64,000 nucleotides of DNA, from assembly GCA_950295325.1 (NCBI GenBank), contig OX485803.1, forward strand, positions 35,169,554 to 35,233,553, given 5' to 3'. Positions 2,180 to 44,160 of this stretch are shown piece after piece; the first letter of the stretch is position 1, and each line of letters opens with the position of its first letter. A program made the position numbers and the translations under genes. The DNA is from Polytrichum commune (lineage: Eukaryota > Streptophyta > Polytrichopsida > Polytrichales > Polytrichaceae). Below the pieces are notes generated by a model that was not told the DNA's origin, searched no databases, and saw nothing but the letters and a program-made list of their open reading frames with translations.

Positions 2180-4445
2180 AGGCAACGTAACTCCAACTAT
2201 GCATAGTTTTAATTTTTTTTTTCCCCTAAAAAGTATATGTCCGGTCGGTTGCCCGCCGTGAAAAATGCCTTTCAATTGGTAATTTGCCATGAATACTCCT
2301 AGGGCAGCTTTAAAAAAAAATTAAATCGGTCCATTTCCAAAAACCTTGATTTTTCTTTCGCAACCCCTTCCTAAACATTTCTATTTGATTCGGAAATTCT
2401 CAAAATCAACCGGCTAGCTTGTAACTAACTGCCAGCACTCCCCGTTCATTGGTTGGAGGCATTATCATAGTTCTTCATGAGAATGAAGTTAGACTAAGTT
2501 GATTAGGTGTGAGACTTGCAGTGGTATTGAAATTGTTTATAATTTTTGGGTTGCATGCCATATTTCTCTAATAATTGCTATTGCGTGCAATATGGAGCAT
2601 AAGAATATAAGCCATGTCAACATAAAATACGGACTATTGCCACATTTTTTGATTTGACGTATATATGTTGATACAAATAATCATGACTAAAGGCTTAAGT
2701 TGTGAATCTGTGATTGATCAAAGTGCAGAGATAAGAGATTTAGAATTGTAAATGTGCATCAAGTGAGAGAGATTTATGAATGAGAGTAAGTGGTTGATAC
2801 TAAGAATGATTGATTTGAGGAACAAGATGGTGATACAAGAGGGTCGAAAGATTGAAACAAAAAGGTCAATACAAGTTGGGAAGATAGAGCAACTGCATAA
2901 AGAGATTAAGATATGATGCAAGTGATAGTTTGAGATAGATTAGAGAGAAGAAATAAGAGTCACCATAGAGAGAAGAGAGAGAATTAGAGTATGATATTCT
3001 AATAGCAATGCCAAAAAGCTTGGCGATACACATGTAAGCAACAAAGAGGTACTTGGAGGCAGTGTACTTAGAAACTACAACATTGTTCATTGTAGTAATC
3101 AAAGGAGATCATTGCCTCGTCACAATGTTGTGTAGACAATAGCTTTAGTGGCCAAAAAATTGCCAAGAGCATGTGAGAGGTGAGGTTAGGAAGAGACATA
3201 AGATGAGATTTTAGGTTAAAGCTTGGAAAGGTTGTGATGAAAGAGAGTGGAGTTGAATTCATGCTGAGTTGCCCATCCGTTGAGAGGACAAAAGTGCAAG
3301 AAGAGGGTCAAGGAGTTAGGGTGACGAGAGTTCTAGACTTGATAGGCTATAGCCCTAGAGCCAAAAGGTGGATTTATACAAAATAAATAAAATAGAAATG
3401 ATAATATACTCCTTTTTGAATGATGTGATGACTATTAGGCTAGTCATACTCTATGCTAACAAAGACTATAATCTATATGTATGTTTACTTTTGGGTGTTT
3501 GGAGGGATTGTAGCCTAAGATGCTATATGTGCATGTTGATTCATGAAGGAGATAATTTCTTATCAAGAACATAGAAGGAACTAATATAGGGTGTATGCTT
3601 TTAGCAATGAAATTTGGTTTATGACTGATGGCATTAAATAATCCTCTTCACTAAGGAAGAAGACATTAACCCCAATGAGATGAAGATTCTTTGAAAGATT
3701 GTGGCCATATGCGACAAAGACTATTGTTCAAGCTAGAAGAACTTCAAGGCAACCTTAGAAGCATGTTATTAGAGTTTTAGGATTCTTCATATAGGACAAA
3801 CTCACTCACAACTAAAATAAACACCATTTAATCCTAATAAGGAAAATAGCAAGTAAAGAACCATTTCAAATGAGATTCCAATAACTTAGAAATATAACTT
3901 ATATAAATTTTGAAACATAACTTAGAGTTTTGAAGGAAATTGTTGTTACTTACTATTCTTTTTGTAAAAGTGCATCATCATGCATTAGTCTCATCAGTAT
4001 ATTCATGTCCTTCACTTGGGTTGATCCCAACTTTAGATTGCTTATGGGATGCAACATTAATTTTAAATTATTGCATGTTTTCTTTAAAGTATAAAGGAGA
4101 CTCTTGAACATGATAAGATTGTTGGGTTCACACTCATGTCAGACCTTTGTGGAAAATCACCAATGTTCGTTAATCCTTTTCTTCTAAACTTTTCTTTTCA
4201 CGCATTTGTCAAAAGTGGGTGCACATGCTAGTTTCCCTAGTGCGCTCACATGTACTCACATGCATGCATGCTTTACATGGAGGAATTCAACACCTAATTA
4301 GTTTAGAGTCCCTCCCAACCATCCGCACTTTCATATCTTATGTGCCGAGTGGACTTTATACATAGTCCCAACCTTCTCAATTTAAAGGTACTGTTGGCCG
4401 CCTACATGAAATGTGTGATATCGTCCCTTGACCGATTTATGGAGT
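2180..4445. other. AT-rich stretch; purine-rich plus strand at 2,700-3,330
   Basis: No coding region is supported. From about 2,700 to 3,330 the plus strand is rich in A and G with many GAGAGA/AGAGAAG words. Overlapping minus-strand ORFs at 2,718-2,921, 2,866-3,102 and 3,068-3,262 (64-78 codons) arise there. Their proteins are rich in Leu, Ser and Tyr, as expected from that composition, and resemble nothing I know. Confidence 0.4.
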
Positions 4446-6794: not shown

Positions 6795-6935
6795 TTACTA
6801 AGCAGTGTGCATTTGTTCTATGGGCCATGAGAATATGATCATGAGATGCATAAATCTTGCATAAGAAGACTCATATTTGGACTAACCTCCCATCATTCCA
6901 TGGTTATATTCCCAGTTCCACAATTGCTTAGTAAT
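6795..6935. mobile_element. MITE family M3, copy a
   Basis: A 141-bp imperfect foldback. The left arm reads TTACTAAGCAGTGTG and the right arm, on the opposite strand, TTACTAAGCAATTGTGGAAC. Further in, both arms carry a TGGG..CATG block. It aligns with 23,584-23,716. No coding capacity. Confidence 0.6.
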
Positions 6936-6939
6936 GTTG

Positions 6940-8440
6940 TGTGGTATCCTGGAATCATGTCAAAGATGTGGTATCAGGTTACAATAATGTATTGGTGGAA
7001 ACTGGGAAAACATAAGTATTTTTTGTGTGAGTATCAACATACTTGATACCAATTGGGTTTACATAATCAACATTTTAAAAAAAGGAAATTTATCATTTGG
7101 GTGATGGGTATTTCAAGCAAAATGTTAGTTCTCTTGCAAGGTTAACGTACAACACAACAACCTTGGTACTTATGCCAAATTACACATGTATTGATATAGT
7201 ATATAGACCTAGCTATTGATGACTTCAATATCTTAGGTTTCATAAATGTGGTCATTACACACTCGATGGCACAAGCAACGCACAAATGCTCCATTATCAA
7301 CATGAAGATTATATCCAAAAAATCAAATTAGATATGTTCTACAGGACCTCATATTCATTATAATCCAATATGGCATATTCTATCCATCATATATTACCTC
7401 CAAAGAATTTCAATTTTGTTGGTACAAATAATAAAATACATCATTTCTTTTGTCACACCATTCCAACTAAAGTTTTCTAAGTCACCCCCCCCCCCCACGA
7501 GCGAGACCCTAGTATAAATCCACAAGTCCTTGGATCTTATCTGATCACTCTTCTCAATTAAACGCCTATATTTGGGTGGTATATTACAAGATTTGTAGTT
7601 AAGAAAAGACATTGACAAATAGAGATGTGTTACAATGACATTGGACTGTGTCCTCAAATATATCAACCATTCTAGGTTCAGATGTTAATGCCATTGGAAT
7701 AAGTTCTTTGAACCTCGCGGAACCAAACACAAATCACATATAAGTGTCCGATTAAGAAACGTTATCGAATAGCACCCTCATACCTTGTGATAAGTTAGCA
7801 GGTTGAGGCCACTCTCGAGTCCCAACGCATGTACTGCTTAGTCGATATAATTTGAGCGACTTTGAAGGTCGTATTAGGGCGGTGTGGGTTAGCTTGGCTT
7901 GCTTATGAGTGCGTGCACTAAGTTAAGCTAACTTATACGTAGCTAGAAATGCAACATCCTGTATGGTAGTAGTAGTAGTAGTGCTGCAGCAGGGCCAGGG
8001 TGCGGTGGCTGAGAAACTGACAAAGCTTTCCAATGATTCAGAACAAGACAAATTGGGTAATCCCCCGAAATTCTTCAAGCTTCAAGCTGGGCCATGGGGA
8101 TTCGGGAATTGTGCTTTCTGTTTAGCTGAAAATTATGTTAAGTAAGAAGTCTGAGTAAGAGCTGAGTCTGTGATGCAAATCACTACCATCATTACTGTCT
8201 CTGGATCTGGAGGAGGTAACTTAACTTCAGGAACAAATCACTGCAAAGCGGGATACTCGGCCCTTTTTATCAGAAAACCTGCTTTTATGGTGATCCCACT
8301 CTTTTAGTGTGGTCATTGGTGGCAACACTAAATCATGGTGTATTTAGTGTCACGAATTCTACATGTCTTGCTCAAGACCTCCTTTGGTCACTAGGAATGG
8401 GGAGCTCCATCCCAGAGGCGTTGCACCCACTAGATTTGTT
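6940..8440. other. AT-rich stretch with C12 run and (GTA)n; possible short exon-like ORF
   Basis: A run of 12 C lies at 7,485-7,496 and an AGT/GTA triplet repeat at about 7,965-7,982. From 7,984 to 8,145 one frame stays open and reads like ordinary protein (a segment with NPPKFFKLQAGPWGFGNCAF), but it begins in the triplet repeat and I cannot link it to a family. At 8,205-8,225 GGAGGAGGTAACTT could be a donor site. No gene is claimed. Confidence 0.3.
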
Positions 8441-26760: not shown

Positions 26761-26980
26761 TTAAAATCTCCACATCCACCCGTCCACACCATGAGACTCT
26801 TGAAGCACTCATGGGTTCCCTTGAGTTTTGCTCCACAGGTTAAGGCTAATTATTGTGCTCTTGTCTTCGTTTAAAATCTCCACATCCACCCGTCCACACC
26901 ATAAGACTCTTGAAGCGCTCATGGGTTCCCTTGAGTTTTGCTCCATAGGTTAAGGCTAATTTTTGTGCTCTTGTCTTCAT
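26761..26980. repeat. Recent tandem duplication, unit 110 bp
   Basis: Two adjacent 110-bp units (26,761-26,870 and 26,871-26,980), each beginning TTAAAATCTCCACATCCACC, differ at only a few positions. Part of the unit is the inverted outer arm of the foldback family (CTCATGGGTTCCCTTGAGTT). Confidence 0.85.
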
Positions 26981-27348
26981 TTGTTTGATGCAATCATTGA
27001 GTTACATACTATGAATGAAAAAAATGTTCAATAAAATTCTCATTGGAAAGTGAGTGTGGATTTTCTATGTAATGAAGGGCTTAGTTAAGTCATGATTGAT
27101 AATTTGTATACTTGGTGGAGGCATTTATCACATTAAAAGTTTTAAAAATCATAAAAATACATACGTCCATTTTCTAGCATGCCGTTAGTGCATATACATT
27201 TGTTTTTCTCTACAAACCTCTCGTATATAGGAGGTTTAATTTCATAGTGACCCATGCACGTCATTTAGGTTTCCAGTGAAGAGTCCACGCCCATGACACA
27301 TTCTTATCCATCCATACCTTATCATCACTCTTACTACACTAAATAATG

Positions 27349-28799: not shown

Positions 28800-29446
28800 T
28801 ACAATACCATGACCTTAGCTCTAGTCGGTTGTGTCGGCAATGTACGTCTTTGTGGACACGCCCTCGACTCTTTATTCCTTTCCCTGCCTCCTGGCCCCTC
28901 GTCGGCTCCCACTGGCCATGCCCTTCAATAATATTACTCCTCACAGAAGACCTCATCGCAATTTACAACAACTCCTCCTCCTCCGGCACTGCTCCTACTT
29001 AGGATATATTACAGTACCCCTGCTGCCACAGTGAAGCTTTTTTGCAGTGTCAGGTTGTGTGGGCCATATTTGCTGCATGGATCAGCCAGCTCTACTGGCA
29101 AATGTGTAAGTATTCCCGGTATATTAGAGTACGATCTAGATAGATAGATAGACATATCTATGTAGTTTTATATATTTCTTTCATGTCATACTGATACGCC
29201 ACTCGAGTCCATGCCTAGTAATCATGGTCGGATTGATGGCCAAGTGAAGTTTGGAAGCTTCTCTTGTTAAGTTAATGAAGAAGAAGCCAAGACCGCACTC
29301 AATGAGGATCTATGGCATGGCTTTTGGAGTTGCTGCTGGCTCCCCTGGCCTGGACCAGCGAGATTCGCCCTATTCGCGCGAATTTTGAATTTACGACCTC
29401 ACATGCTTCAGCTCCCAATCATGTGATTATACAACGCATTTCCCGG

Positions 29447-30125
29447 ATCCTCCACAAGCCCACCGGCTTCCCAAAAGACAAAAATAAATAAAAATTCCTC
29501 GTCCCTTAATTAACTTGGTTAATCTGCCGAGTTTGCGAGCTGCTGATCATCACGCGAAATCCCCTTTTGGGATTCCTTGCAAAAACCTCACGGCATACCA
29601 GCTGCAATGATTTCATATTAATTAGGTCAACAAAAGATAATCATCCCAGGGCTGCCAAAACGCCCTGAAGATATTTTTACTCTGTTGCAGTGCAGTTTCG
29701 GCCTTTGGAGTGCAGCGATGGAGTTCAAGAGCATACAAGGTAAGTTAATGTCCAGCTTAGAAGTTAATAAACTCGTTCTTATAAAAATTCCTCACAGAGA
29801 TTGCCTCACACGTGTCAATCCACCATCGTGGCATCATCATATATACTATACCTTATATCGGATCTGGAGAAGCCCACCTGCTTCTGAAAAGACAAAGTTT
29901 CTTCTCCCATTTCTTCTCCCTGTAGTACGTTAATCTGTCAAAGTTTGTGTTGATAATTCAAATTATAATAAAAAAAAACCAAAAACCCTTGTTAGGATTC
30001 TTGCAAGACTCACAGCACACAGGCTGCAGTGATCTGTGTTAGGTCAACGTAATATATTCATCGCAGCTGCAAAACACCCTTAAGAAACTCACACTTTACT
30101 GCAGTACAGGTTTAGTCGTAGAGTT
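29447..30125 (+). repeat. Diverged tandem duplication, offset about 414 bp
   Basis: The stretch from AAGCCCACCGGCTTC (29,456) through GGGATTCCTTGCAAAAACCT and CAGCTGCAATGATTT to CAAAACGCCCTGAAG is repeated from AAGCCCACCTGCTTC (29,870) through AGGATTCTTGCAAGACTCAC and CAGGCTGCAGTGATC to CAAAACACCCTTAAG. Both copies are followed by TTTACT(C/G)...TTGCAGT or CTGCAGT, possible acceptor sites, so an exon/intron module may have been duplicated. Confidence 0.6.
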
Positions 30126-30858
30126 GATGGAAGAAAGACTGGATTTGTGATGTAGATTTGGAAATTAGAATTTAGAGACCTCGTTCCGGTTAATTATGAG
30201 CTGAGTGAGTGAAGGGCTCTCTCTTTGATTAATCTGAGCGGTGATTTGTCACAAGTTTGATGGACTTTCTCTCTGTTTCTGAAAGCTGCTAAGTTAAGTT
30301 AAGCAGGGTTTTTCTGGTACTGGAAAGTTTGTGGAAGCCCCTGGCATGGATTGAAGCAACTGATATTGAATCAACTTCTCTTGAAAGTTTCAGGTAAGCC
30401 TCCAAAAACCATCTGAGCAGGTAGTCCATGACCCATTCATGGTGCCGCAATGTGGGTGTCTGCATGTAGTGGCACATGATGATGATGATGCTTCGTAATA
30501 TAAGTTAAGTTAGTTACCGCACACACACGCCAAGGCCCGAAGCTGATGCCAGAGAACACATTCAGTTTGGGGACTTTGCTTGCTTGCTTGCATGCCATGC
30601 ACATGATGATGGCGGCATGATATATGATCATATTAATAATAAAATATGCGGGACGTTTTCTTTTTCCCTTGCTTTTCTGGTGACCCACCCTATCTGGGGG
30701 ATTGTGAGAAGGATTGGAGCGTCCTGCTCTCGGATTCATGAATTCTCCCAGGCTGAAGGCTATGGAGAAGGGGCAAAGGGAGAGGACAAAATGGGAAGAG
30801 GAGCGGTTAATTTGGCAAACAAACTTGGCTCACACATACGGGAGCTTGCTCAGCCTGC

Positions 30859-30876
30859 GGGGGGGGGGGGGGGGGG
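30859..30876. repeat. G18 homopolymer
   Basis: Eighteen consecutive G, the longest of nine C/G runs of ten or more in the window. Confidence 0.9.
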
Positions 30877-30969
30877 TAAAGAAAGCTGACTCAAGTTGAC
30901 CCCATGCACTTGGAGAGTAATTTTCTAAGTCTTGCTCTACTTTAGAGCATTTAATTGCATGGCTCTCTT

Positions 30970-31016
30970 AGAGCCACTTCACACATGAGCCAAGAGCCGT
31001 GACCATGAAATTGGTG
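30970..31016 (-). mobile_element. MITE family M1, copy C, terminal fragment
   Basis: GAGCCACTTCACACATGAGC followed by CAAGAGCCGTGACCATGAAA equals the right end of M1 on the opposite strand. TTA precedes it (30,967-30,969). The M1 text stops where the LTR-like block at 31,017 begins, as if cut or invaded there. Confidence 0.7.
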
Positions 31017-31520
31017 TGTGAGCCCAAAAGGGTGCCCACATGTCTTCTTAGCCTCTAAAACTGTGAGAATTTCGTAATTGTGTTGTGTGAGTAGTTAAAA
31101 GTGATAAAAGTTTAGATTTAGTTAAGTTTTGTGTGTTTTATGATCGATGGGATTTAGTCGAGTTAATTATGTGACTCGAGGTATTAAAAGTGAAAAGATT
31201 AAAAGCAAGCAATTAGTTCAATTTAGTTATGGACAATGCTTGAGTTCAAGCGACCTTTAGGCTTGGGTTATGGTTAGTTAGGCTTGAATGATTGTTTGTT
31301 TTAGGCTTGGGTTTGGTTAATTCAAGGAAGGGGGGTCGCCTTCGGAAAGAGATAAGGCAGTTGGATTTCCGTTAGGTCCAGGAGGGGTCCGGGAAGAGGG
31401 AAGCCTCTCTCTCTCTCTCAGTTCTCTCTCTTGGGTGTTGGGTTGTTGCCGAGGGTCGGTCACGGGTAGATCACTCCATTGTCAAGTTGAACACCACGTG
31501 CGACCAAAAAAAATCTTCTT
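31017..31520 (+). mobile_element. LTR-like fragment 1
   Basis: Begins TGTGAGCCCAAAAGGGTGCC, the block that also opens the fragments at 44,797 and 55,222. As in those, an AT-rich 5' part is followed by a CT-rich tract (about 31,405-31,432) and then a GTTGTTGCCGAGGGTC block that may be a decayed primer site. Length and 3' limit are uncertain and no internal polyprotein was found. A solo LTR or a diverged 5' LTR is the likeliest reading. Confidence 0.45.
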
Positions 31521-32600
31521 TTGGTAAGTTGCACCACCAAAATGGGTCAAAATTTTATCAATTTTTTTTCCATGAGTAGATATACACAGTACCTATGACA
31601 TAATTAAAAGTGGTAACTAAATTTGATGATTTTTTTTCTTTCATAAAACATACCGTTTCTAACTAGAATGACACAAAACTGAACTAAAACAATTACTAAA
31701 AAAAATAAAGATGACTAAAATTTATAAAAATTTATAAAAAAGATACTATCAATGGTTATGTATATGTAGAAAAAATATCATAAATTTTAAAATTATACAT
31801 GGCATGTAATATAGGGGTAGCAAACTTTGTCCGCACGTGGTGTCAACTTGACAATGAAGTGACCTCCCCGTGGGGTTGGTGGAGCAAAGAGGCAGGCTGC
31901 GACTGAGATCGCAGCTTTCTCTACAGCTGGGCTCCAGGGGATGGCTAGGCATTGAGCCGCAACATGAGAACATGGTAGTCGGCGGTCTCGAATGAGGCAG
32001 TGACAGGGTCTAGTGACGAACTGATTCCACAAGGCGGAGGTCTATGGGAGAGAGTAGAGAATACGGCTGCCTTGAGGCAGCCTGGGAGAAGGCCGCAAAA
32101 GACTCTGAGGTTCGGTAGATGAGGGATGGCTACAAATTCCGCGAGCGAGGGTTAAATCAGCTCCTACAGCAGAGGCGACTCACGGCTAAACCCATCTGGG
32201 CTTGGGAAGGAGCCATTGCTGCCGACGCGAGGGGATTCATTCGAGGTGAATCAGAGTTCAATTACGGCCAAAAATGGTTTGAGGGCAATCAACAATTTAT
32301 TTAGAGATTAGAACTAGGTGTTGTTGGAGTGTTGGTAGGGAATGTAGTAGTGGTGATTAGGTGAGTAGGGGATTAAGGAAATGAGTATTGGCAAGCCAAC
32401 ATTGTGGAGTGGTGTTGCCTCACTGCCTAGGAGATGAATTAGGTTAGTTGAGTGTTTTATTGATGTAGGCTAGAGACTGGTGATTGGGTGTGGCAATAAC
32501 TGAGAGGAAGATGTGATAGCAATTTTTAGTTTATCTTTTTGCAAATTAGAATTCAGTGTAAAAAGGGACAAAATCTGCACTGAAATCTTAAGATACTGTC
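31521..32600. other. AT-rich then G/C-richer stretch, no product assigned
   Basis: From 31,840 to 32,300 the sequence is clearly richer in G and C. Overlapping ORFs (31,749-31,973 and 31,793-32,032 minus; 32,119-32,304 plus) have no motif I recognise. Being downstream of an LTR-like piece, this could be remnant internal retroelement sequence; that is a guess. Confidence 0.3.
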
Positions 32601-32609
32601 CATGTGAAC

Positions 32610-34010
32610 AGACTATAGTCTTCAGATTCTGAAAAGCATAACTTCCAAGGCTATAGTCTGATATGAAAGGATGTAAGACTGAAGAGGACTCCCCACACAA
32701 TATAAAGGAAGGGGGAGGTAAGAGAGAAGTTAGTCATCTCTGGGATAGAGATTGAACTCCATTGTTTTTAGACCTTTTGAAGTATAGTCTGCAAATTGAT
32801 GCACTTTGGTTGTGCATGACGATAGTCTTTTGATGTAACATTGATCAATATTAAGTAATTACTTATATGGGAGTGAATCCTGAATTATTTCATTATGAGA
32901 GATTTATCTTGTTTCTGTTGTTGTGTCTATTGGATATTAATTGTGAATTCAGGCTATAGTCTGATATTGGGATGGAAGACTGATTTGAAGTGATTGTCAG
33001 GGCTATAGTCTGTGGTTGTTGTAAGTACACCTTGCAGGGATTGCAAAGTGTAGGAATTACTGTTGTTAGAATTGTTTCTACCTTGCTACAGTGATTACAG
33101 TTCATGGCCTTGTGTGTTGTGTGTAATTGATTGCAAGACCACTTGAATCAATAGAATTGAGTAAACTCAATTACATGATCAGGCCATAGTCTAAATTTAT
33201 CATTATATAATGATTCAGAGAAAATGTACACGGCCAGGCAATGGTCTGCATTAATAACTGAGATCATCTCTCATCATAGTTTAAGGCAATAGTCTGGGAA
33301 GTTACCTTCCTGTGGGAAGGGAAGATGAGATTTCATTCTCAATTACCTTGAGTGAAGGCTATCGTCTTCGTGATTGACTAGGGAATTTCCCGGAGGGATT
33401 GGGGTAGACCCAATTAAGGCAAGACTATAGTCTTGGTAATCAAGAGGAATTCTGAGAGAGGAATTGTCATGGTGTAATCAAATGTAAATCTGAGAGCTTC
33501 ATGTCAATGGAGTAAGAATGTGAAATTAATAAAGTAAGTGATGACATAAGCTAATAAGATGATTAAATGAAATCAAGGAATCTGTACTAGCCCAATGAGT
33601 GTGTGTGTGTGTGTGTGTTTGTAATCCTAAGTATAAGTAACTTAATGGATTGAGAAGGCAATAGTCATGTTGGGAGACGAAAGGGCCTAGTGGAAAGACT
33701 ATAGCCTTGAACAGTTACCTTGGTGAGAAACCGAAAGGACAACGCAGTCATTGGCTGAATGTTTCCTATTCCAGGAAGGGGTAATCCTAATCTCGTTGTT
33801 TTGTAATTGATTAATAATTGAATGTATGCGCTCTTATCCTACATATGGTTTTGTTGGATTTATGATTCATAATGCATAAAGACTATATTAAAGGCTATAA
33901 TCAAATGTGTATTATGCTAATATGAATCTAAAGACTATAGCAAAGATCAAAGTGCCCTTGGCTTTGATTATTAAGACACAATGATGATACTTATGCAAAG
34001 ACTATAGTCG
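32610..34010. repeat. Cluster of about 17 near-palindromic CTATAGTC motifs
   Basis: A short motif with consensus A-R-G-R-C-T-A-T-A-G-T-C-T recurs about every 85 bp at irregular spacing. Approximate starts: 32,610; 32,649; 32,780; 32,819; 32,951; 33,001; 33,181; 33,236; 33,283; 33,354; 33,421; 33,656; 33,696; 33,878; 33,891; 33,931; 33,998. The form AGACTATAGTCT (32,610 and 33,422) is a perfect 12-bp palindrome. The 17-mer AGGCTATAGTCTGATAT is present exactly twice (32,648 and 32,951), each followed by AAGACTGA about 10 bp later. Spacings are not multiples of three, so coding repeats are unlikely. No ORF over 76 codons lies here. Confidence 0.75.
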
Positions 34011-34504
34011 ATGACTGTGCCTATGCTTGTGCACCGCACTTGGTCCTAATAAAAAGAATTCACTGCCAGACGATTGCCATGAAAAGTAAAGTGAGGTGAG
34101 AGACTGTCACTCTTGCATGTACTGGAAAAGAGGGGTCTTTTAGATGTTTTTTACCCCTTACCTTTAAATGAATTGTCACACCAAAGATGAAGTAAAGTGT
34201 TATACCTTTGTGTTTATCCTAACAAAACCTTGTCTAAGACACCTAGATGATATAAGAATCACCTTTTAAGTCTTCCCTGACTTGTTCCCTGGGTTTGTTT
34301 GTAACCAAACAGCTAACTACAGAAGCAAAGTATTTTTAAATGCTTGTTGCCTCGCACTCTTTGAATAAAAAGCTGTGTGTTTAGTGTTCATGTGTTGGAG
34401 TATTGGAGTATTGGGAGTTGGATTCCAAGGCTAAGGAAGTCAAGCAAGTACATGTGAGTTATAGGCTCTCACCTGAATTACGACGCATAAGGGTGGGAGT
34501 TTTT
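34011..34504. other. No gene recognised
   Basis: AT-rich sequence between the CTATAGTC cluster and MITE M1 copy B, with no shared repeat noticed. Confidence 0.4.
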
Positions 34505-34970
34505 GGCTGACATGGTGACAACCCAAAAGAAAGTGTCCCAAGACACCTTCACAACCATGTAGTAGGTAGGGTGGTCACGGACCCACGAGTGTAGTGTGAA
34601 GTCACATGTGACCGGGCCCTCAACCAAATACTATTTCAATGAATGTCTACTCATGCGGGTCCTCACACATGATCAAATTGAGAAAATCAATGGTTGTGAG
34701 CGTTCGGAGTGCTGTGGTCTCCCGGGTTTGTGTTAGGCCTACTTCCAAGAGGTGATTTTTGAAAATAGTCGAAGTGACCATGAAACATGATCCATTTGAT
34801 GCCATGTAGGAATCCATGTAGACTTTACATCCATCTTGCATTCACTTACTCCGTTGGTCCCTCAAGTGTAGTGTGAAGTAACGAACTTGGACCAGCTCTG
34901 CCTTTTCGACCAATGAGAGTGCTTGAAGTGCAATGGTCACGAGCTCTCAGTCTCATGTGTGAAGTGGCCC
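34505..34970 (-). mobile_element. MITE family M1, copy B, minus strand, left end decayed
   Basis: On the minus strand this matches copy A almost throughout. It ends at 34,970 with GAAGTGGCCC and TTA follows (34,971-34,973), the expected target triplet. The opposite end, near 34,505, has lost its GGGCCACTTC terminus and begins in diverged form (GGCTGACATGGTGACAACCC). Both CACACTAC...TTGAGGG words are present. Confidence 0.8.
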
Positions 34971-34973
34971 TTA

Positions 34974-36640
34974 GTGAACAGATGGATTATTCACCGTGTA
35001 TTTATAGAAGTAACTTCGATTTCTCAATTGCAATCGATACTGCATAAAGTAGCCCACTGTTTAACAAAAGTTCACTACACTGTGACAAAATTTTAGGACC
35101 TGGTGGCTCATCAAAGGAGCTTAAAAACCCATACGCAACCTTATAGCGAGCACGTTGGGCAGTCGGGCACATGCATCTACACATGACCATGACCGTGGCC
35201 ATGGCTTATGCAAATAATAAGAAAAGTATATTACATCATCGAGTTGTTCAATTTTCCGTCAGTTGAAGCATGGCAGGCTATATTCGAAGGCTGGCACACC
35301 CGTGTTTTTCTCCTTGTTGTGAGAAAAATGAGAGTGGATGGGGAGTGGATGAAAGTCTTTCTACAATAACTCATGTTTGCATCACTGGTTATTACCATGA
35401 GTGTGGATAGGAACGTACTTTGAACACTTTTGGATGTAAGGGCTAGGGCTTTGTGTCATCTTGATAAACTCATCCGTTGTGGATTGAAGGGGCTATAATG
35501 AAAAAACATGGCCTTTATTAGATTCAATGCATTGGGACCTCACTAGACTACTTCGAGGTATTTGATGTCAATTCTGAATCTAACCAACTAGAAATTTTAA
35601 AAAATGAGACTATGACATGCTCGCTGTAATTTCGGTTTTTGTAGTAGACATCTAGAAGTTCTCATGAGCTACATACACACATGTACCTACACTACTTACA
35701 TAAATTCTTTACCAACACTAGAGTACAAATATGTAATTCAACCGTCCACTCCAAGGTACATTTTGAAGCAGAGGAGAGGAAGAATAGATGCATGCATGAG
35801 AGATGAAAATAAAGTTTAGAGGAAGTTGCATACATATGAGAAGTTTTCAACAGTTTAGAAACTATTTCACAGGGTGAATTGGCCACCCGTGGTCCGAAAC
35901 TGGCACTGTAGCATACGTCTGCTTTTTGCATTACTAAAATGATTACTAAAATGGCATCATTGGATATATCGCCTTCATAACATTACTCAGCTAATGAGTT
36001 TGTGCTCAACTATCATGTGTGTAGAGTTAGTCTGAAGCACTAGGATTCCGGCATTTGAAGGATTTATTCTCGAATCTACTACAAGGTTCGTGAACATAAC
36101 TCATCGGTTGAGTAATGTTATGTTAGCGTATTGATTGTGCATTCCAATTTATCAAGTAGGAGTTATAATTAAGGATGTTTTTGTGTCAAGATTAGAAAAG
36201 AGATTGAGTTGTGACTTAGGATGCTTACATGTCCAGCCCATAAAAGGGGAGAGTTTTAACCCTCCCCCCCTATGAACTTTCAGGGGAAGGGATCTCTGCA
36301 TGGATAGGGTTTGGGGGCCGCGGTCTGGCACCCTAATTAGCCCCCCCCCCCCAAAAAAAAAACTTCCATTTTTTGTTTATCGCGATTGATACTGCCCATC
36401 CCGCCTGACTTCAAAGAAAAAATCATCCTTGCATTCTTGATGGTTGCTTGTCCACAAAACTCATATTGAGTGCACTTCACCTTCAAGGTCCAAAATGCAA
36501 TATATATGTTCCCTTCCTCTAGGTAAATATGCAATTGACTAGGATTTCATTCCCGAAGTGAAATCATCAATAAAGCATGCAACTAAGTTGGAAGTTTAAA
36601 ATATTACAAAATGGTCATTTGCATTAGAGTTATTTGTAAA
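34974..36640. other. AT-rich stretch; C12-A10 junction
   Basis: Twelve C followed directly by ten A at 36,341-36,362. Short ORFs at 35,002-35,202, 35,692-35,931 and 36,337-36,534 (minus) have no recognisable motif, and the last starts in the homopolymer. Nothing else recognised. Confidence 0.4.
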
Positions 36641-37035
36641 GTAAAGTGAACAAAACCATGGGTTTAGTCCCAAACCACGAGTTTATGAGAATCAACACAA
36701 AGTCACCCAAGTTTGCTTAATGCTTAAATTATCATCCACAAGGAGTGGTGCTAGGCTATTAAAAACCAACCTCCTAGCTTGTCCTACTAGAATGGGTGGG
36801 CCAAGCTAGCCTTGCATAGGCCAATCCGGGATGTCGGACAACGGATCCCATGCGCATACTCTTATTGAAATCCTTAAATTCTCTCAAAGCTTGAGTGGTG
36901 AGAAGAGGAGATCCCAAAATTTGCACCCAACTTTCAAAATAGGCTCCAAAACATGATGAGCTAGAGACCTATTGATAGAAAGCTTCCTCAAAGAACGATC
37001 AAACTTACAACGTGTCCCTATTTGAGAGACTTTGC
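36641..37035 (-). repeat. Dispersed repeat R2, minus-strand copy with empty insertion site
   Basis: Reverse complement of the R2 copies at 21,331 and 49,366. Landmarks are GCTTGAGTGGTGAGAAGAGG, GGCCAAGCTAGCCTTGCATA and TGCTTAATGCTTAAATTATC. On the R2 strand the last reads GATAATTTAAGCATTAAGCA without interruption, the empty counterpart of the 49,679-50,433 insertion. Confidence 0.75.
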
Positions 37036-37149
37036 AAATGACTATGTGGAGGTTAAGTTTTTGTGACTTACCATTTGATAAGGCCTTTGTCATTCTAAAA
37101 CAAAACCTAGATTCTATGTGAAATATTTAGTATGTACATTTTATAATAG

Positions 37150-37460
37150 TTCAGTTAATGTCTTCTATTTTCACAAGTATTCATACACATGCAAAGTGAT
37201 TATGCGTGATTAAATGTAATTGAGCGTAAATAACCATAATTGAATGTAATTCAGCGCAAGGCCTGAGTTTCTAAAAGTATTTATAAACATTCAAACTAAT
37301 TGAGCCTGATTAAGTGCAAGTAAACATACTTAAGTGTAATGAAACCTAAAGGAGTATAATTAAGCACATGGATTCTTATACCTGGATACCATAATAACAA
37401 TTTATTCAAGTAAGCGTATTTTAGATTTAATTAGGCTTACTTAATTGCATTGTAACTAAA
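37150..37460. repeat. Degenerate short-phrase repeat (TAATTRAGCRTAA-like)
   Basis: About ten loosely related words of 10-13 bp (for example GTAATTGAGCGTAA, GTAATTCAGCGCAA, CTAATTGAGCCTGA, ATAATTAAGCACAT) are scattered over 300 bp. Too diverged to define a unit length. Confidence 0.4.
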
Positions 37461-37469
37461 CGATTGTAT

Positions 37470-37855
37470 CAACAAACAAAGACAACATCGCAATAACTTA
37501 ATGACAATCTAGAGAGAAAAATTGAAGGCAACCTATGAGAGCTCCAAGGAGCCTCTATCCACGACAAACATGGTAGTCATTGATGACTATGGCCATATGA
37601 CAACAATGGTAGAAAACATCAAGTGGATGAAATTAACACATCTATTGTCAGTTTGTTTTTTAAACCTTAGCCCCCTGCCCCTTATACATCTACATTTATT
37701 TCAAAAATATATAATAGCCTTTCTAGATGTACACACTAACGAAAAATCGTACCTCTCCCTAGTGTAAACTATGTACACTAATGCCTCAAATAACACCCCT
37801 TCTTGCACTTGTGTTAGTTGATGCATGGTATGAAGAGTCCACCCCTCCCAGGTGA
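37470..37855 (+). mobile_element. Foldback family, single left-arm copy
   Basis: From CAACAAACAAAGACAACATC to GTATGAAGAGTCCACCCCTC this follows the left arm at 23,817-24,240 in order and spacing. The landmarks GTAGTCATTGATGACTATGG, AAACCTTAGCCCCC and TATACATCTACATTTATTTC match. No matching right arm was found, so it is truncated. The 81-codon ORF 37,522-37,767 lies within it and is incidental. Confidence 0.65.
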
Positions 37856-37859
37856 GGAT

Positions 37860-39145
37860 ATCTTAGATTTATCCAATTTAAAAGGCTTGAAATAGTATGC
37901 AGTCTAGAGGTTACTTTCTTTAGTTGATTTGACACATGAATTAGTTCTAGAAACCCCGGGTTAGTGTACTCAAGATCATTTGAGATGAATTAGCAACAAA
38001 TCCATAGGGGGTCAAGTTTTAATGTTGGATGGATGAGAGGTATGCTTGTATATGATAATTCCCTCTCTTCGACTAGACCGGAGTGAGCCTATCTGAGGGG
38101 TTGATCACACCAGCCAACCCTGACATCATTTGTCAGCATCTCTGGATGTAGTGGTGTGAAAACTGGTGTGAAAATTTGTGGATCATCGGTTTCTCAACAT
38201 CATCCCCATCGATTTCACATCTGGAACCGGACGAAAATTTTGATGTGATCGGGGCATGAGTGGGAGAACATTTTGGTTGAATCAAACTTGAATCGCACGG
38301 GCTACCAATCCTTGCGTGACTATGAATTATTGGGTGCAGTGGCAGAGAAAGAGAAGAATATATATGCACCCGTGGTGTGAACAGTTGACGATTACAAAGC
38401 ATGGGCTTCATCGGATGACTGGGACTGGACAGCCCACAAGAAGTTGTTTTCCAGGTACATATAGTATACCCACCAACCCCGTGTAGAAAAAACAGAAAAC
38501 CAAAAAAAAAAACATAATATGCCCGTCCACATTGTCAGCTTCTTCTACTTCCTATAAGTACACTGCCCTAGCGGCCAGCAGCGCTTGTTGATATCCTTTC
38601 AACCTCCAGCTCAGCAGCCAAAATAGAGCTCATCAATACGATATTTTCCTTGTAATTTTTTAACATAACATCACGACACCAGTCTCGGACTCGACCTTGA
38701 CACTGGTATGTGTGCACAAATACCAGAAAATTATTTTCGCCCTCCATACTTCCATGTTGAAAGATAGATAGATATAGAACAATCAACTTGATTATTAACT
38801 GTTGGGTACCAATTGGGTGTCAGGCAGGCAGGCAGCCAGGCAGCCAACTTACACATGATGTAATATGTCCATGGCAATGTGATAATCGTATATCTTGGCT
38901 TGAATGTGGAAATTTTGTTTTGAATCCCAACATGTGTGGATTCGAATGGACCGTGTATCAGTGCCAAGGGATTCAAGGTCAGCACGATGTCGGTGGTTGC
39001 ACATGGAGCCTCCTGGCTTAAAGAAGTGGCATTACGCATTTCGATAAGTGAGCCCTGTGTGTACTAAGGAATGATATTATACTTGTGACCGGGAATATCG
39101 CTCCTCATCTATGGGAGTAGTGTGTGTGTGTGAGACTTGACATCT
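37860..39145. other. No gene recognised
   Basis: A CAGG/CAGC tetranucleotide repeat lies at about 38,820-38,845 and a short GATA run near 38,763. ORFs 38,133-38,411, 38,568-38,786, 38,731-39,039 (minus) and 38,788-39,021 (plus) overlap on both strands and have no recognised motif. Confidence 0.4.
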
Positions 39146-39679: not shown

Positions 39680-41170
39680 ACAAACTTCAATGTAGGTCAT
39701 TTCACTTAAAGAGATCCCTCTAGTTTTCAAAATGCTCGTTGTAGGATTAAGAAGAAGAAGAAGAAGAAGTCTGGTCTCCGGAGGATGTTGTAGGATTACA
39801 TATAGGTTTAAGACCTACAAAATTATTAAGCAACATCATAATTTACAGCGATGGCAACATTGAAGTCATCGTGAATCTCTTTCATTACTCTTAGAGACAG
39901 TGAGAGGGAATGCCTCTCATTCATCAAACATAAAAGTCATGAAATAATATCTAGTCTAGATTTTAAAAAAAAATTTAACAGTTGATTTGACAAATTTGGA
40001 ATTGGTTTCAAAGATTCCGAGTTAGTCTTGGCAAAAGTCCCTCTCCGCCGTAGAGACTATAGTCAATTGAACCTCCAGTCATTGAGTGCAAGAAAATCGT
40101 AGTTTGTAAGTATGGTTTGCCATCAAAAAAATAATGATAATTCGTATGGCTTGCGTTACATGTTGACAGATAAAAAGATATTACATGGTTTAGAATTAAT
40201 GTATTCAAATTAGGTATGCAGGTGTGAGAGAAACTTATGAAACATGAGCTTACTTTTCTATCACGCAGTGAAGACACTCTTAAATTGGAGATTTTATTTA
40301 TTTATTTTCAGTGGATTTGATCCCAAATCAGTTTAGTGAGGTACACTTTGAGATGAATTAACGACACACATATTGGAGACAAATTTCTAACATGAATGGA
40401 CGAGACATATCCTCTTACACAACAGTTCCCTCTAGCTCGTATGTTTAGATATTAAACGTGGTTTGGAACCAAACATTTGACCTCTCATAGTTGGTGTATG
40501 ATGAAGATGTGTTCATTCCATTGAGAAATATTTTACGCAAGATATGAATCACTGTCATTGGATTTTTTTTTTTGTTGGACTATGTAATTCTCAAAATATA
40601 TCAGATGTCATTTGTTGCAAAACTTATTTGGTGCCATAAATTGTAAAAGCTCTCTTAATATCAAACCTCTTTTGCCTCTCCCATTGCAAAACCGATTGAA
40701 CCATGTCAGTGGATAATGTAGGTTTTAAAACATGTCTTTTGGGGACTTTGAAGTCCATGTTCATTCTAATATTTTTTCCATGATGTAAACCAAAGTGGTC
40801 CCGGGACGAGTTCAACAGCCAATGAAGACCCAATTTTACAATATCTTGGGACGACTTCATGGTCCATAGTGTAAAAAGCCCCTAATAATCCTTATTTTGC
40901 AGCCTTCATCCAATAATATGGACTTCAATGCCTGAACTCTCTTGAGAAGATTGGATTCTGCATTCCCTCTAAAAATGACAAACTAAATTAATAAAAATTC
41001 CCCAATTACATCTGTAATGAGAAATCGTTAATTGAACTAACTGCTCTCGGCCAGACTTGTAGCAGGTTCCCCTGTCACACAACCTGCAATTCCAAATCAA
41101 TAAAGCTGACAAGGTACAAAAAATCTTGGGAAGAAGTTTGGGGAAAGGAAATTTTGGAGCCAGATGTACT
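39680..41170. other. AT-rich stretch, no gene recognised
   Basis: (AAG)n at about 39,750-39,768. ORFs at 40,008-40,277, 40,624-40,860 and 40,969-41,256 (minus) have no recognised motif, and the last runs into MITE M1 copy D. Confidence 0.4.
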
Positions 41171-41939: not shown

Positions 41940-42960
41940 CCCCAATGGTTTCATCCTCAAAAATAGATGCCCGTCCCCTTCCCCTCATCAACATCCAATT
42001 CACTTTCCCTTTCTACGATATGTGCCTTAAACACCTTTCCAAGGCAAAAACCTGAGGCCCAGATTCCATTCCTAATGATATGCTTAAATCCTATTTATTT
42101 ATTTATTTTAAACAATGCTACTTGCAAACATCCATCCGAACTCTTGAACACATACCACCACCATTCTCTTGTTCAAAAATGATGACCTCAACTTCATTAC
42201 AAACTACATGCCTATAACCTTAAATTGTATAATTAGCAAACTTTTAACAAGCACTCTCACATCCCTTCTAATATCTCACGTTCAAAAAGACCAAATACTA
42301 AACCATGGTCATGAAGGCTTTCACCCTATGTGCAACACAACACGCCAATTCCAAGTCACTATTGCATCACTACAAGATGCCAAATTCACAACCAGAGACA
42401 TCTATATTACCTATGTCAACTTCCAAAATGCATTTGGTTCGATTGATCATGCTCACCTACTAGCCACCATGCTTGACCTTGGCTACCCACCGGACGTCAT
42501 CCAACTCATTGGAAATATCTACTCTCACTCCACCACCTCCTTCCAAGGAACACACTTCACAAAAACATCCCCCATCCTTATTAGCCGCAGCACAATACAA
42601 GGAGACATTGTTCGCCCCTAACTATTTTATCATCTTTCTACAACCTTTCCTCTATTGGCTAGTCCATGGCCTCCAAGGGTACAACTTTAACACCTCCTTC
42701 ACCCAAATTACCACCATTGCATATGCAGATACCTTGCTAGTCTCACTCACAACATATCACATATCACATATCCAACTACAACTAACAAAACAACAACATT
42801 TCTCACACTAGGCTCATATGGACTTGGGAATCTCCAAATGTGCAACTATTGGATGCCCCAATAAATCTAAATTGCAACCATTAGCCTTCACCACCAAGAT
42901 AAACCTTATGTTCGCCTTGCTCTCCACATCCATCACCTTACATTATCAACTAAAAATGCA
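41940..42960 (+). pseudogene. LINE reverse transcriptase remnant
   Basis: The first RT block reads LSKAKT, a stop, GPDSIPNDMLK (42,040-42,090), the counterpart of the usual PGPDGIPNE. The next is NYMPITLNCIISKLL (from about 42,205), then YITYVNFQNAFGSIDH near 42,410, where Asn replaces the catalytic Asp of the usual YVDFxKAFDSVDH. STIQGDI at 42,590 is the polymerase GxxQGxxLSP block. A frame change there puts NYFIIFLQPFLYWL and the AYADTLLVSLT block (42,718-42,750) in another frame, and the second Asp of the YADD box is replaced by Thr. MDLGISKCATIG follows at about 42,820. With both Asp changes, a stop and a frameshift it cannot be active. Confidence 0.85.
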
Positions 42961-43249
42961 ACCCAAATAAAGATGTCATCACCACCCAGATACATGATCA
43001 TACATGAGCCATACCATACATCCATCCCTCTTGACCACCTTTTTGGGTTATGGGAGAGTTTCTCTTGTTTCATACCCTCTAAACCTCTACTCTACAACTA
43101 CCCCCACAAGATTTTGCCACCGAACTACTCGTGATTCCAAGATATACCACCACACTGCCTTGCCATCGACATCTTCATACACACTAATAACCTTACTAGT
43201 AATTACCTTCTCCATAATTATATAAACCACCCATCCTCCCAACACAAAC

Positions 43250-44160
43250 ACCTAGATAAGCTTCAAATAGCCACTATAATTTTCAATATCCAACATTCAA
43301 CAAGAAGTTTGTGCGCACAACAATATTTTTGGTAATGATAAAGCCGACAAACTTGCCAAACAAAGGGTCAAATGTGACCCTATATCCATAACTCTCGCCC
43401 CATTCCACCTCATAGGCCACCAAATACCTTACTAGCCCACCAATACCTACTTCCACCCAACACGATGGCTCAATTCAAAATATTAAATGATATATAAAAA
43501 ATGAACATCATAGTTCACAAATCTCGTATGCATGCCTCACCTTCCCCTTTGTTTCTAAATGGTTACATAACACAAACAAACATCAACTACGGTCCAACCT
43601 TTTTTGGAATTCAAAAGCTAACCTCCAATTCTCAAAGCACTCGAGTCCTTAAATTCCGCTATGGCCTATACATGGGTAACCAATGCAAACAACAAATCTT
43701 CAACATGTTGCTCCCCTCCCTTTGTACCCTTTGTCGCCTTAGGCAAAATGATACCGTAATACCTTTAGCAATTTGGCTATTTATAGATAAAAGTGTTATT
43801 TCTACTTCTAGATTCGGAAATTTTGGATCTGAAGGGAATAATCCATATTGTTTTTTTAGAATTATAAAATAAAATTTCCAAAAAATTGGTTTTCCTAAAA
43901 ACATTTTTATAAGTGCTCAAGTGGTAAAGGTACTACGGTACATGCACACATCTCCTTTCATGTTATACAAACAAACATATTAACAACCTTTGTCCCAACA
44001 TACATAACAAAGTTGTTCATGCACTAGCTGACACCCTCCTTTCCTACTCCGTATTGCGTCACTACACTCTTATACATGCCGGCACTCACAATAACCGTAA
44101 CCTATATACACACAACTCTCTTGGTTATTTCCTTGCACATTTTCACTCCCCCATTGCAAA
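43250..44160 (+). pseudogene. LINE RNase H and C-terminal remnant, copy 2
   Basis: From 43,307 the frame reads VCAHNNIFGNDKADKLAKQR, the RNase H C-terminal signature. The open segment 43,501-43,872 contains VLKFRYGLYMGN and then S-L-C-T-L-C near 43,715, followed by QNDT, matching the C-T-L-C...T-W-P-H tail of copy 1. Past an unmatched stretch, HINNLCPNIHNKVVHALADT (from about 43,980) and HAGTHNNRN correspond to the GIAKKNKAVYLI and NAGTLYKQ blocks of copy 1. Several stops and frame changes are present. Confidence 0.75.

What the first reader, a model, noticed from the sequence alone, without database searches (positions are those of the whole stretch)
32610..34010. Cluster of about 17 near-palindromic CTATAGTC motifs with no known explanation
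The motif (A-R-G-R-C-T-A-T-A-G-T-C-T; palindromic form AGACTATAGTCT) recurs roughly every 85 bp over 1.4 kb, with irregular, non-codon spacing and otherwise mostly unrelated sequence between copies. Its sharp restriction to this block, and one 17-bp version occurring exactly twice, go beyond AT-rich noise. A dimeric DNA-binding protein, an array of element-encoded binding sites as in transposon subterminal repeats, or decay of a minisatellite would each fit. I know no named element with this signature.
Basis: partly seen in the sequence, partly recalled or inferred. Interest (0 to 1): 0.75.

Follow-up and report, generated by a model that had tools for sequence, protein, structure and literature searches.

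The report
Palindrome array in a retrotransposon LTR
The 17 repeated short palindromes sit in the control region of a leftover end (solo LTR) of a plant-type jumping gene, where they look like conserved docking sites for a paired DNA-binding protein that would switch the element on or keep it from being silenced.

Summary
In detail: 17 sites (AGACTATAGTCT, up to 3 mismatches) lie between 32610 and 34010, well above chance. The block is the upstream part of a solo LTR (32512-34321) of a Ty3/gypsy retrotransposon; at least 31 copies in this genome cover the 1,511-bp query. In complete elements the LTRs start about 14 kb apart (two pairs, 99.9-100% identical), with a tRNA-Asp primer site, gag-pol, a 2.2-kb linker and an extra ORF of about 900 aa: an Athila-like layout. 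The palindromes also fill the linker upstream of the extra ORF. Across 21 LTR copies motif columns vary less than spacers, below all 1,510 shifted controls. In 10 relatives, non-coding DNA that no longer aligns still holds 164 GRCNATNGYC sites (28 expected). The array looks selected. Best reading: binding sites for a dimeric regulator of the LTR and linker; whether the binder is the extra ORF's product or a host factor is open. Against a strict link, six loci keep the ORF with a weak or absent array. Closest known: the palindromic boxes of Ty1/copia Sireviruses and the VANC-VANDAL system. New variant of a known kind.

The parts
32512..34321 (+). Solo LTR (about 1,810 bp) of an Athila-like Ty3/gypsy retrotransposon, TGTGATAG...CTAACTACA
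   Evidence: Boundaries from alignment to two LTR pairs about 14 kb apart; at least 31 copies that cover the 1,511-bp query, this one included; no second LTR in window 29001-39000 (self-comparison)
32507..32511 (.). 5' target-site copy, GAAGA
   Evidence: Read; pairs with 34322-34326 at 4 of 5 bases
34322..34326 (.). 3' target-site copy, GAAGC
32610..34010 (.). Array of 17 palindromic sites AGACTATAGTCT (up to 3 mismatches) starting at 32610, 32648, 32779, 32817, 32951, 33000, 33181, 33236, 33284, 33356, 33422, 33656, 33696, 33880, 33892, 33932, 33999
   Evidence: motif-column diversity 0.112 against 0.194 in spacers over 21 LTR copies
32648..32681 (+). Composite block: motif followed by GATATGAAAGGATGTAAGACTG, parts of it invariant among the 21 copies
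   Evidence: Lowest-diversity 12-mers start at 32659-32662
32951..32983 (+). Second composite block: motif followed by GATATTGGGATGGAAGACTGA, parts of it invariant
   Evidence: Lowest-diversity 12-mers start at 32956-32968
33930..34321 (+). The part of the LTR that still aligns (78-81%) to 5 of 10 more distant relatives; holds the last two motif sites (33932, 33999; diversity 0.02 and 0.00) and presumably the core promoter, R and U5
   Evidence: the assignment to promoter, R and U5 is inferred
34047..34055 (+). TATA-like TAATAAAAA, starting 37 bp after the end of the last motif site
   Evidence: Read by eye; inferred only

Best explanation
Shown: the block is the upstream part of a solo LTR of a Ty3/gypsy retrotransposon with an Athila-like layout, and the palindromes form an array in the LTR and again in the linker between pol and an extra 3' ORF. 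Indicated by statistics: the sites are kept by selection across copies and persist or re-form in relatives whose spacers have been replaced. Inferred: each 10-12 bp palindrome (general form GRCNATNGYC) is bound by a dimeric, sequence-specific protein, one half-site per subunit. Occupancy of many sites upstream of the LTR promoter, and of the linker upstream of the extra ORF, sets transcription of the element, by activation or by keeping the region free of silent chromatin. My lean for the binder is the element's own extra-ORF protein, which has no obvious membrane helix and, in some members, a heptad-rich middle stretch (about 0.45); a host transcription factor is nearly as likely (about 0.40).
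For: LTR identity: end-to-end repeat family; two LTR pairs 99.945% and 100% identical, about 14 kb apart; primer site TGGCGCCGCTGCCGGGGA 3 bases after the 5' LTR complementary to the 3' end of tRNA genes (22 genomic matches to the tRNA pattern; 3 of 3 fetched are tRNA-Asp); gag, protease, RT, RNase H and integrase by Pfam. Second array: 28 CTATAGTC-like matches in the 3' internal piece L006 (3.7 expected), 19 of them in the linker, against 4 (3.4 expected) in the 5' piece L005; in the linker alone 17 palindromes with up to 3 mismatches (1.7 expected). Constraint: motif columns below all 1,510 circular shifts. A scan of all 1,024 ten-base palindromes at gaps 0-3 returns GRCTATAGYC as the top one in the window LTR, in L006 and in 7 of the 18 relatives (L007-L013); GACCA or GGCCA centres are top in L014, L016 and L017. 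Turnover: 164 sites against 28.3 expected (mononucleotide shuffles) in non-coding DNA that does not align to the window's clade, 10 loci. Extra ORF under purifying selection: dN well below dS in the pairs where dS is finite.
Against: No binding, expression or methylation data. No known DNA-binding domain in the extra ORF. In the 6 loci of the 42-46% clades the extra ORF is kept but the array is weak or absent (8, 5, 7, 1, 12 and 8 sites against 2.4-3.8 expected), so the link between ORF and array is not strict. The core motif changes little while the ORF falls to about 40% identity, which also suits a conserved host binder. In the unalignable DNA two of 20 pieces (L018 downstream 2 sites, L015 downstream 4) do not exceed their shuffles, and the ten loci are partly related to each other, so the 164 sites are not independent. 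Control stretches of the window gave unrelated palindromes with z up to 7.1, so the top word of L017 (z 6.0) is weak by itself; 30 kb of window without the LTR gave 34 GRCNATNGYC sites against 24.6, reached by 0 of 30 shuffles. A crude heptad count finds the coiled-coil sign at the expected place in only 6 of 11 members.
Confidence: 0.75

Rival explanations
1. The sites bind a host transcription factor: an ordinary LTR enhancer array, with the linker sites serving an internal promoter for the extra ORF.
For: The core GRCNATNGYC persists while the extra ORF diverges to about 40%; the two sites next to the putative core promoter are among the most conserved. LTRs commonly recruit host factors, e.g. 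ONSEN (PMC12786077, passages).
Against: The array is dense in this lineage but not in the one locus tested of the abundant 53%-integrase family (6 sites, 6.3 expected; that its LTR lies in the 6 kb read was not checked), and it is repeated upstream of the extra ORF. No host factor with this site is known to me (recall).
Confidence: 0.4
2. VANC-like anti-silencing: the extra-ORF protein binds the arrays and strips silent chromatin from copies of its own family.
For: Architecture like VANDAL21: motif arrays in non-coding parts, a fast-evolving extra protein beside a conserved pol (integrase 94%, over 225 codons, and extra ORF 51% identical for L006 and L013), motif drift between subfamilies. VANC21 binds YAGTATTAY arrays (PMC5735166, Results).
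Against: VANCs belong to Mutator-like DNA transposons; no DUF1985 or DUF287 is listed for the extra ORF. The 42-46% clades keep the ORF with a weak or absent array.
Confidence: 0.25
3. Decayed minisatellite or chance clustering.
For: Short AT-centred palindrome; several degenerate copies; 4 of 17 sites are no better conserved than their flanks.
Against: No tandem structure, irregular spacing, conservation of the sites taken together, persistence in unalignable relatives.
Confidence: 0.02
4. Subterminal repeats of a DNA transposon, bound by a transposase.
For: Dense short motifs near element ends resemble Spm/CACTA subterminal repeats (recalled).
Against: The unit is an LTR with TG...CA ends, tRNA primer site and gag-pol.
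Confidence: 0.01

Closest known systems
Sirevirus repeated motifs (Ty1/copia; Osr10, Inga, HOPIE, OPIE-2)
   Same: Palindromic boxes in high copy in the upper half of the LTR, upstream of the TATA box, and in ENV-bearing members again in the linker upstream of ENV (PMC2829016, abstract and sections 9 and 19)
   Different: Here a Ty3/gypsy element; motif GRCTATAGYC without the CGG-CCG core; 17 sites in one LTR, where the paper's table lists at most 14 per 3' LTR
VANC21 and VANDAL21 (Arabidopsis)
   Same: Short motif arrays in non-coding parts of an element that also encodes a fast-evolving extra protein; motif differs between subfamilies (PMC5735166, Results)
   Different: DNA transposon; motif non-palindromic, arrayed in one orientation, often in tandem repeats; binding shown there, not here
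Athila lineage of Ty3/gypsy elements
   Same: No second RNase H and no chromodomain found; sense extra ORF between pol and 3' LTR with weak PF20167, which was also found in a sunflower Athila extra ORF predicted nuclear (PMC11728184, passages); recombination between distant families (PMC2410132, abstract)
   Different: I saw no palindromic LTR array reported for Athila in the listings (9 of 9 papers listed; 12 of 61; 10 of 33), which is not a full search; no obvious transmembrane helix in the extra ORF here
Retand elements with TRP28 antisense ORFs
   Same: Long pol-to-3'LTR region with an extra ORF suggested to bind DNA; about half have tandem repeats there (PMC11963269, abstract and passages)
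   Different: ORF antisense there, sense here; tandem repeats rather than dispersed palindromes

Membership tests
LTR retrotransposon, Ty3/gypsy | Two LTRs with TG...CA ends and a short target-site duplication | tested here: met
   two pairs 99.945% and 100% identical; AGTCC/AGTCC duplication in the C1 element. In the window and the C3 element only 4 of 5 bases agree (GAAGA/GAAGC, GGCCA/GGCCC)
LTR retrotransposon, Ty3/gypsy | Pol order protease, RT, RNase H, integrase | tested here: met
   C3 element
Athila lineage | No chromodomain and no second (additional) RNase H | tested here: met
   Pfam at E up to 1 lists neither in the ORFs of the C3 element; one element only
Athila lineage | tRNA-Asp primer site (that Athila uses it is recalled) | tested here: met
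Athila lineage | Sense 3' extra ORF of the Athila type (PF03078/PF20167) | tested here: inconclusive
   PF20167 in 9 of 11 members, best E 2.1e-6; for member 1 the score is 19.9 bits against a 45-bit cut-off; PF03078 not listed
Athila lineage | Position in an RT tree with reference lineages | not tested
   No reference plant RT set was at hand
Sirevirus | Ty1/copia polyprotein order | tested here: not met
   Integrase follows RT and RNase H
VANDAL/VANC | Mutator-like transposase and VANC domains DUF1985/DUF287 | tested here: not met
   None listed by Pfam in the element's ORFs
VANDAL/VANC | Extra protein binds the repeated motif and removes silencing | not testable with these tools
   Needs biochemistry or methylomes

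The most novel reading that the evidence does not exclude
An Athila-like retrotransposon carries its own sequence-specific control system: the 900-aa extra-ORF protein, of a kind usually filed as envelope-like or unknown, is a nuclear dimer that reads GRCNATNGYC palindromes in the LTRs and linker and relieves host silencing of its own family, a retrotransposon counterpart of VANC evolved independently and swapped between lineages as a 3' module.
Probability: 0.27. Interest if true: 0.82.

Novelty: new variant of a known kind. Interest (0 to 1): 0.52.

Why it matters
The functions of the extra ORFs of plant LTR retrotransposons are described as unknown (PMC11728184, passage). Finding that such an element carries a conserved palindromic array in its LTR and again just upstream of its extra ORF gives that ORF a concrete, testable job. 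The layout matches the Sirevirus boxes in the other superfamily, which suggests that two distant retrotransposon groups arrived at one control design. If the ORF protein binds the array, it would be a retrotransposon example of sequence-specific self-activation or anti-silencing.

Tried and rejected
Chance or AT-rich noise: rejected. Minisatellite: no tandem array in the block. RNA family: no Rfam match in the window at the gathering threshold. tRNA: none in the window.

A different motif in the 43% clade (GTNACNNGTNAC) looked like a motif switch in L019 and L021 (11 and 9 sites, about 1.1 expected; L020 3), but the positions show a local heptamer tandem repeat of about 100 bp in the LTR region. 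I dropped that claim.

Solved structures: 13 distinct sequences at E up to 1, chiefly coiled-coil chains; the best (E 7e-4, NDUA8 type) covers profile positions 289-416, the coiled-coil-like stretch, so I give it no weight. Three forms of the motif string are not in the paper library as whole words (0 papers).

Enrichment inside the extra ORF I do not count: a conserved codon run for DYGL can resemble the motif by itself (inference).

Genome-wide, AAGRCTATAGTCT has 143 + 159 matches against 7 + 8 for the reversed control. The listing showed 100 rows, all on C1 and C2; I merged 11 opposite-strand duplicates to 89 places. Of these 53 lie near family members listed do not (29 clusters); those 36 were not identified.

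The 12-mer palindrome scan hit its time limit; 16 of 17 loci had printed, L010 was not reached. In it the top gap-0 palindromes of L043, L045 and L046 have GCTA or ACTA centres again, but for L045 the score barely exceeds the shuffled maximum (6.6 against 5.8) and a gapped word scores slightly higher (6.8).

L044 (one of 5 loci fetched below related integrases) shows no long ORF like the extra ORF in 8 kb and a mild excess of sites (16 against 7.3); I draw nothing from it.

Full report
Observation. The window holds 47 places that match AGACTATAGTCT with up to 3 mismatches (26.6 expected, largest of 100 shuffles 38); 17 of them fall between 32610 and 34010. CTATAGTC with up to 1 mismatch gives 66 matches (38.3 expected), of which I count 24 in the block. 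The exact 17-bp pair at 32648 and 32951 is real. No tandem array was reported in the block.

What it is. The block aligns end to end to a repeat family in the same genome (408 Mb, 64 contigs, unnamed). One search lists 42 matches; I count 31 that cover nearly the whole 1,511-bp query (the window's own included) at 73-100% identity, and 11 partial ones. Only 40 of 215 candidates were scored, so this is a lower bound. Several copies come in same-strand pairs whose starts are about 14 kb apart (one pair 16.6 kb). The two pairs I fetched match each other at 99.945% over 1,813 bp and 100% over 1,791 bp, and stop sharply at TGTGATAG...CTAACTACA. These are LTRs, so a whole element is about 15.8 kb. 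In window 29001-39000 there is one LTR only, 32512-34321, flanked by GAAGA and GAAGC: a solo LTR. One fetched element has a perfect AGTCC duplication. The window copy and the C3 element agree at 4 of 5 bases, both with A against C at the last base, so a 4-bp duplication with an LTR that begins with A is also possible.

The full element. Three bases after the 5' LTR comes TGGCGCCGCTGCCGGGGA, complementary to the 3' end of a tRNA; the pattern has 22 genomic matches, and 3 of 3 fetched are tRNA-Asp. The internal part of the C3 copy, read as two pieces (L005, L006), has gag with zinc knuckles, aspartic protease, RT, RNase H and integrase, and no chromodomain or second RNase H listed. Then come about 2.2 kb without a long sense ORF and a 909-codon open frame that ends shortly before the 3' LTR. 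This is the Athila-type layout: non-chromovirus elements without additional RNase H, many with extra ORFs and large non-coding regions (PMC6317226, passages). The extra ORF has only a weak PF20167 match (9 of 11 members; best E 2.1e-6; member 1 at 19.9 bits against a cut-off of 45). PF20167 was also reported in a sunflower Athila extra ORF predicted to be nuclear (PMC11728184, passages). No transmembrane stretch stands out (highest 19-residue hydropathy 1.13-1.67 over 11 members), and a crude heptad count places a coiled-coil-like stretch near residues 240-390 in 6 of 11 members.

A second array. L005 has 4 CTATAGTC-like matches (3.4 expected) and L006 has 28 (3.7 expected): 2 in the pol end, 19 in the linker, 7 in the extra ORF (my count). 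In the linker alone there are 17 palindromes with up to 3 mismatches (1.7 expected). So the palindromes sit upstream of two genes: in the LTR upstream of gag-pol, and in the linker upstream of the extra ORF.

Selection. I aligned 21 LTR copies: the window, L001, L007 and 18 further copies that I chose from the 42 matches (fetched). Motif columns have mean pairwise diversity 0.112 against 0.194 in spacers; none of 1,510 circular shifts of the site mask is as low. Sites 33932 and 33999, next to the putative core promoter, are the most conserved (0.02, 0.00). Not all sites are conserved: 32779, 32817, 33181 and 33880 are no better than their flanks. Two sites are part of longer conserved blocks (32648-32681, 32951-32983).

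Turnover and breadth. A search with the extra ORF listed 54 matches, the long ones down to about 42% identity; I fetched 18 regions around them and 5 regions below related integrases. Scanning all 1,024 ten-base palindromes at gaps 0-3, without prior choice, returned GRCTATAGYC as the top one in the window LTR, in L006 and in L007-L013 (7 of 18 loci), and centres GACCA or GGCCA in L014, L016 and L017. L015 gave an AT repeat, L018 GTTCA with GGCCA second, and of L019-L024 only L023 had GACTA as its top gap-0 word (z 5.1). Two control stretches of the window gave other words with z up to 7.1, so the lowest of these values (L017, 6.0) is weak by itself. The general form GRCNATNGYC with up to 1 mismatch is enriched in the 13 loci with extra-ORF identity of 49% or more (L006-L018, L006 taken with the window LTR; 11-44 sites against 2.4-3.7 expected), and in L043, L045 and L046, whose integrases are 78-81% identical (17, 25 and 17 sites against 3.8-4.2). 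It is weak or absent in the six loci of the 42-46% clades (8, 5, 7, 1, 12, 8 against 2.4-3.8) and absent in the one locus of the 53%-integrase family (6 against 6.3). A 30-kb window stretch without the LTR gave 34 against 24.6, reached by 0 of 30 shuffles, which shows how far background can drift. In 10 loci I removed everything that aligned to the window's clade; the rest still held 164 sites against 28.3 expected from mononucleotide shuffles. Eighteen of the 20 pieces exceed the largest of their 50 shuffles; L015 downstream and L018 downstream do not. The loci are partly related to each other, so the sites are not independent. In the 5 loci that still aligned to the window LTR the aligned stretch lies within 33930-34321. 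Spacers have been replaced while the array persisted or re-formed.

Modular evolution. Integrase (partial, 160-225 codons compared) and extra ORF tell different histories: L020 and L021 share integrase (dS 0.018) but differ in the extra ORF (dS 2.27), and L006 and L009 have dS 0.45 against 2.67. L019 and L021 go the other way (0.44 against 0.27). The extra ORF has dN far below dS in each pair where dS is finite. Recombination among distant Athila families is known in Arabidopsis (PMC2410132, abstract).

How it most likely works. Dyad-symmetric sites of 10-12 bp, many per control region, conserved as a set and regenerated, are what a dimeric DNA-binding protein needs. I infer that occupancy of the LTR array drives or protects transcription of the genomic RNA, and that the linker array does the same for the extra ORF. 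The binder is not shown. For the element's own protein speak the position of the second array, the lack of both array and extra ORF in the one 53%-family locus (6 kb read), and the parallels below. For a host factor speak the stability of the core motif and the clades that keep the ORF with a weak or absent array.

Comparison. Sireviruses (Ty1/copia) carry palindromic boxes in the upper LTR and, only in ENV-bearing members, boxes in the linker, mostly upstream of ENV; their function was left open (PMC2829016, abstract and sections 9 and 19). VANC21 of the VANDAL21 DNA transposon binds short motif arrays in non-coding parts and removes silencing; related VANCs use different motifs (PMC5735166, Results; PMC10398659, abstract). 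The element here is a member of neither group. I saw no report of such an array in a Ty3/gypsy element in the searches; these were read as listings, searches showed 12 of 61 and 10 of 33 papers, and most subscription papers are not in that library.

Verdict. Real, apparently selected, and explained as to what it is; the binder and effect are open. New variant of a known kind.

Noticed in passing
42148-42621 (+): Fragment of a reverse transcriptase (PF00078, E 4.8e-5, below the curated cut-off), by eye of the non-LTR type, in a strongly C-rich stretch (GC skew -0.45 at 42001-44000).
   Followed up: partly
L020 and L021 (G000 C4 and C2): Two elements with nearly identical integrase (170 codons, dS 0.018) but extra ORFs at dS 2.27: the 3' module seems to have been exchanged between lineages.
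   Followed up: partly
L019 about 6898-7004, L021 about 7071-7177 (oriented to the extra ORF): Local heptamer tandem repeat (GTTACTG-like) in the LTR region of the 43% clade, in L019 directly beside GACTATGGCC-type sites.
   Followed up: yes
L005 285-671 (+): A separate 128-codon open stretch with a zinc knuckle (PF00098, E 7.8e-5) lies upstream of gag in the C3 element.
   Followed up: no
3463-3474 and 40054-40065: Isolated one-mismatch copies of the palindrome outside the LTR; not identified.
   Followed up: no
26761-26982: Two-copy 110-bp tandem duplication, 95% matches.
   Followed up: no
G000 C1 and C2: 36 of 89 listed genome places of AAGRCTATAGTCT (29 clusters) are not near any family member listed here; decayed copies or another element carrying the motif.
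   Followed up: partly
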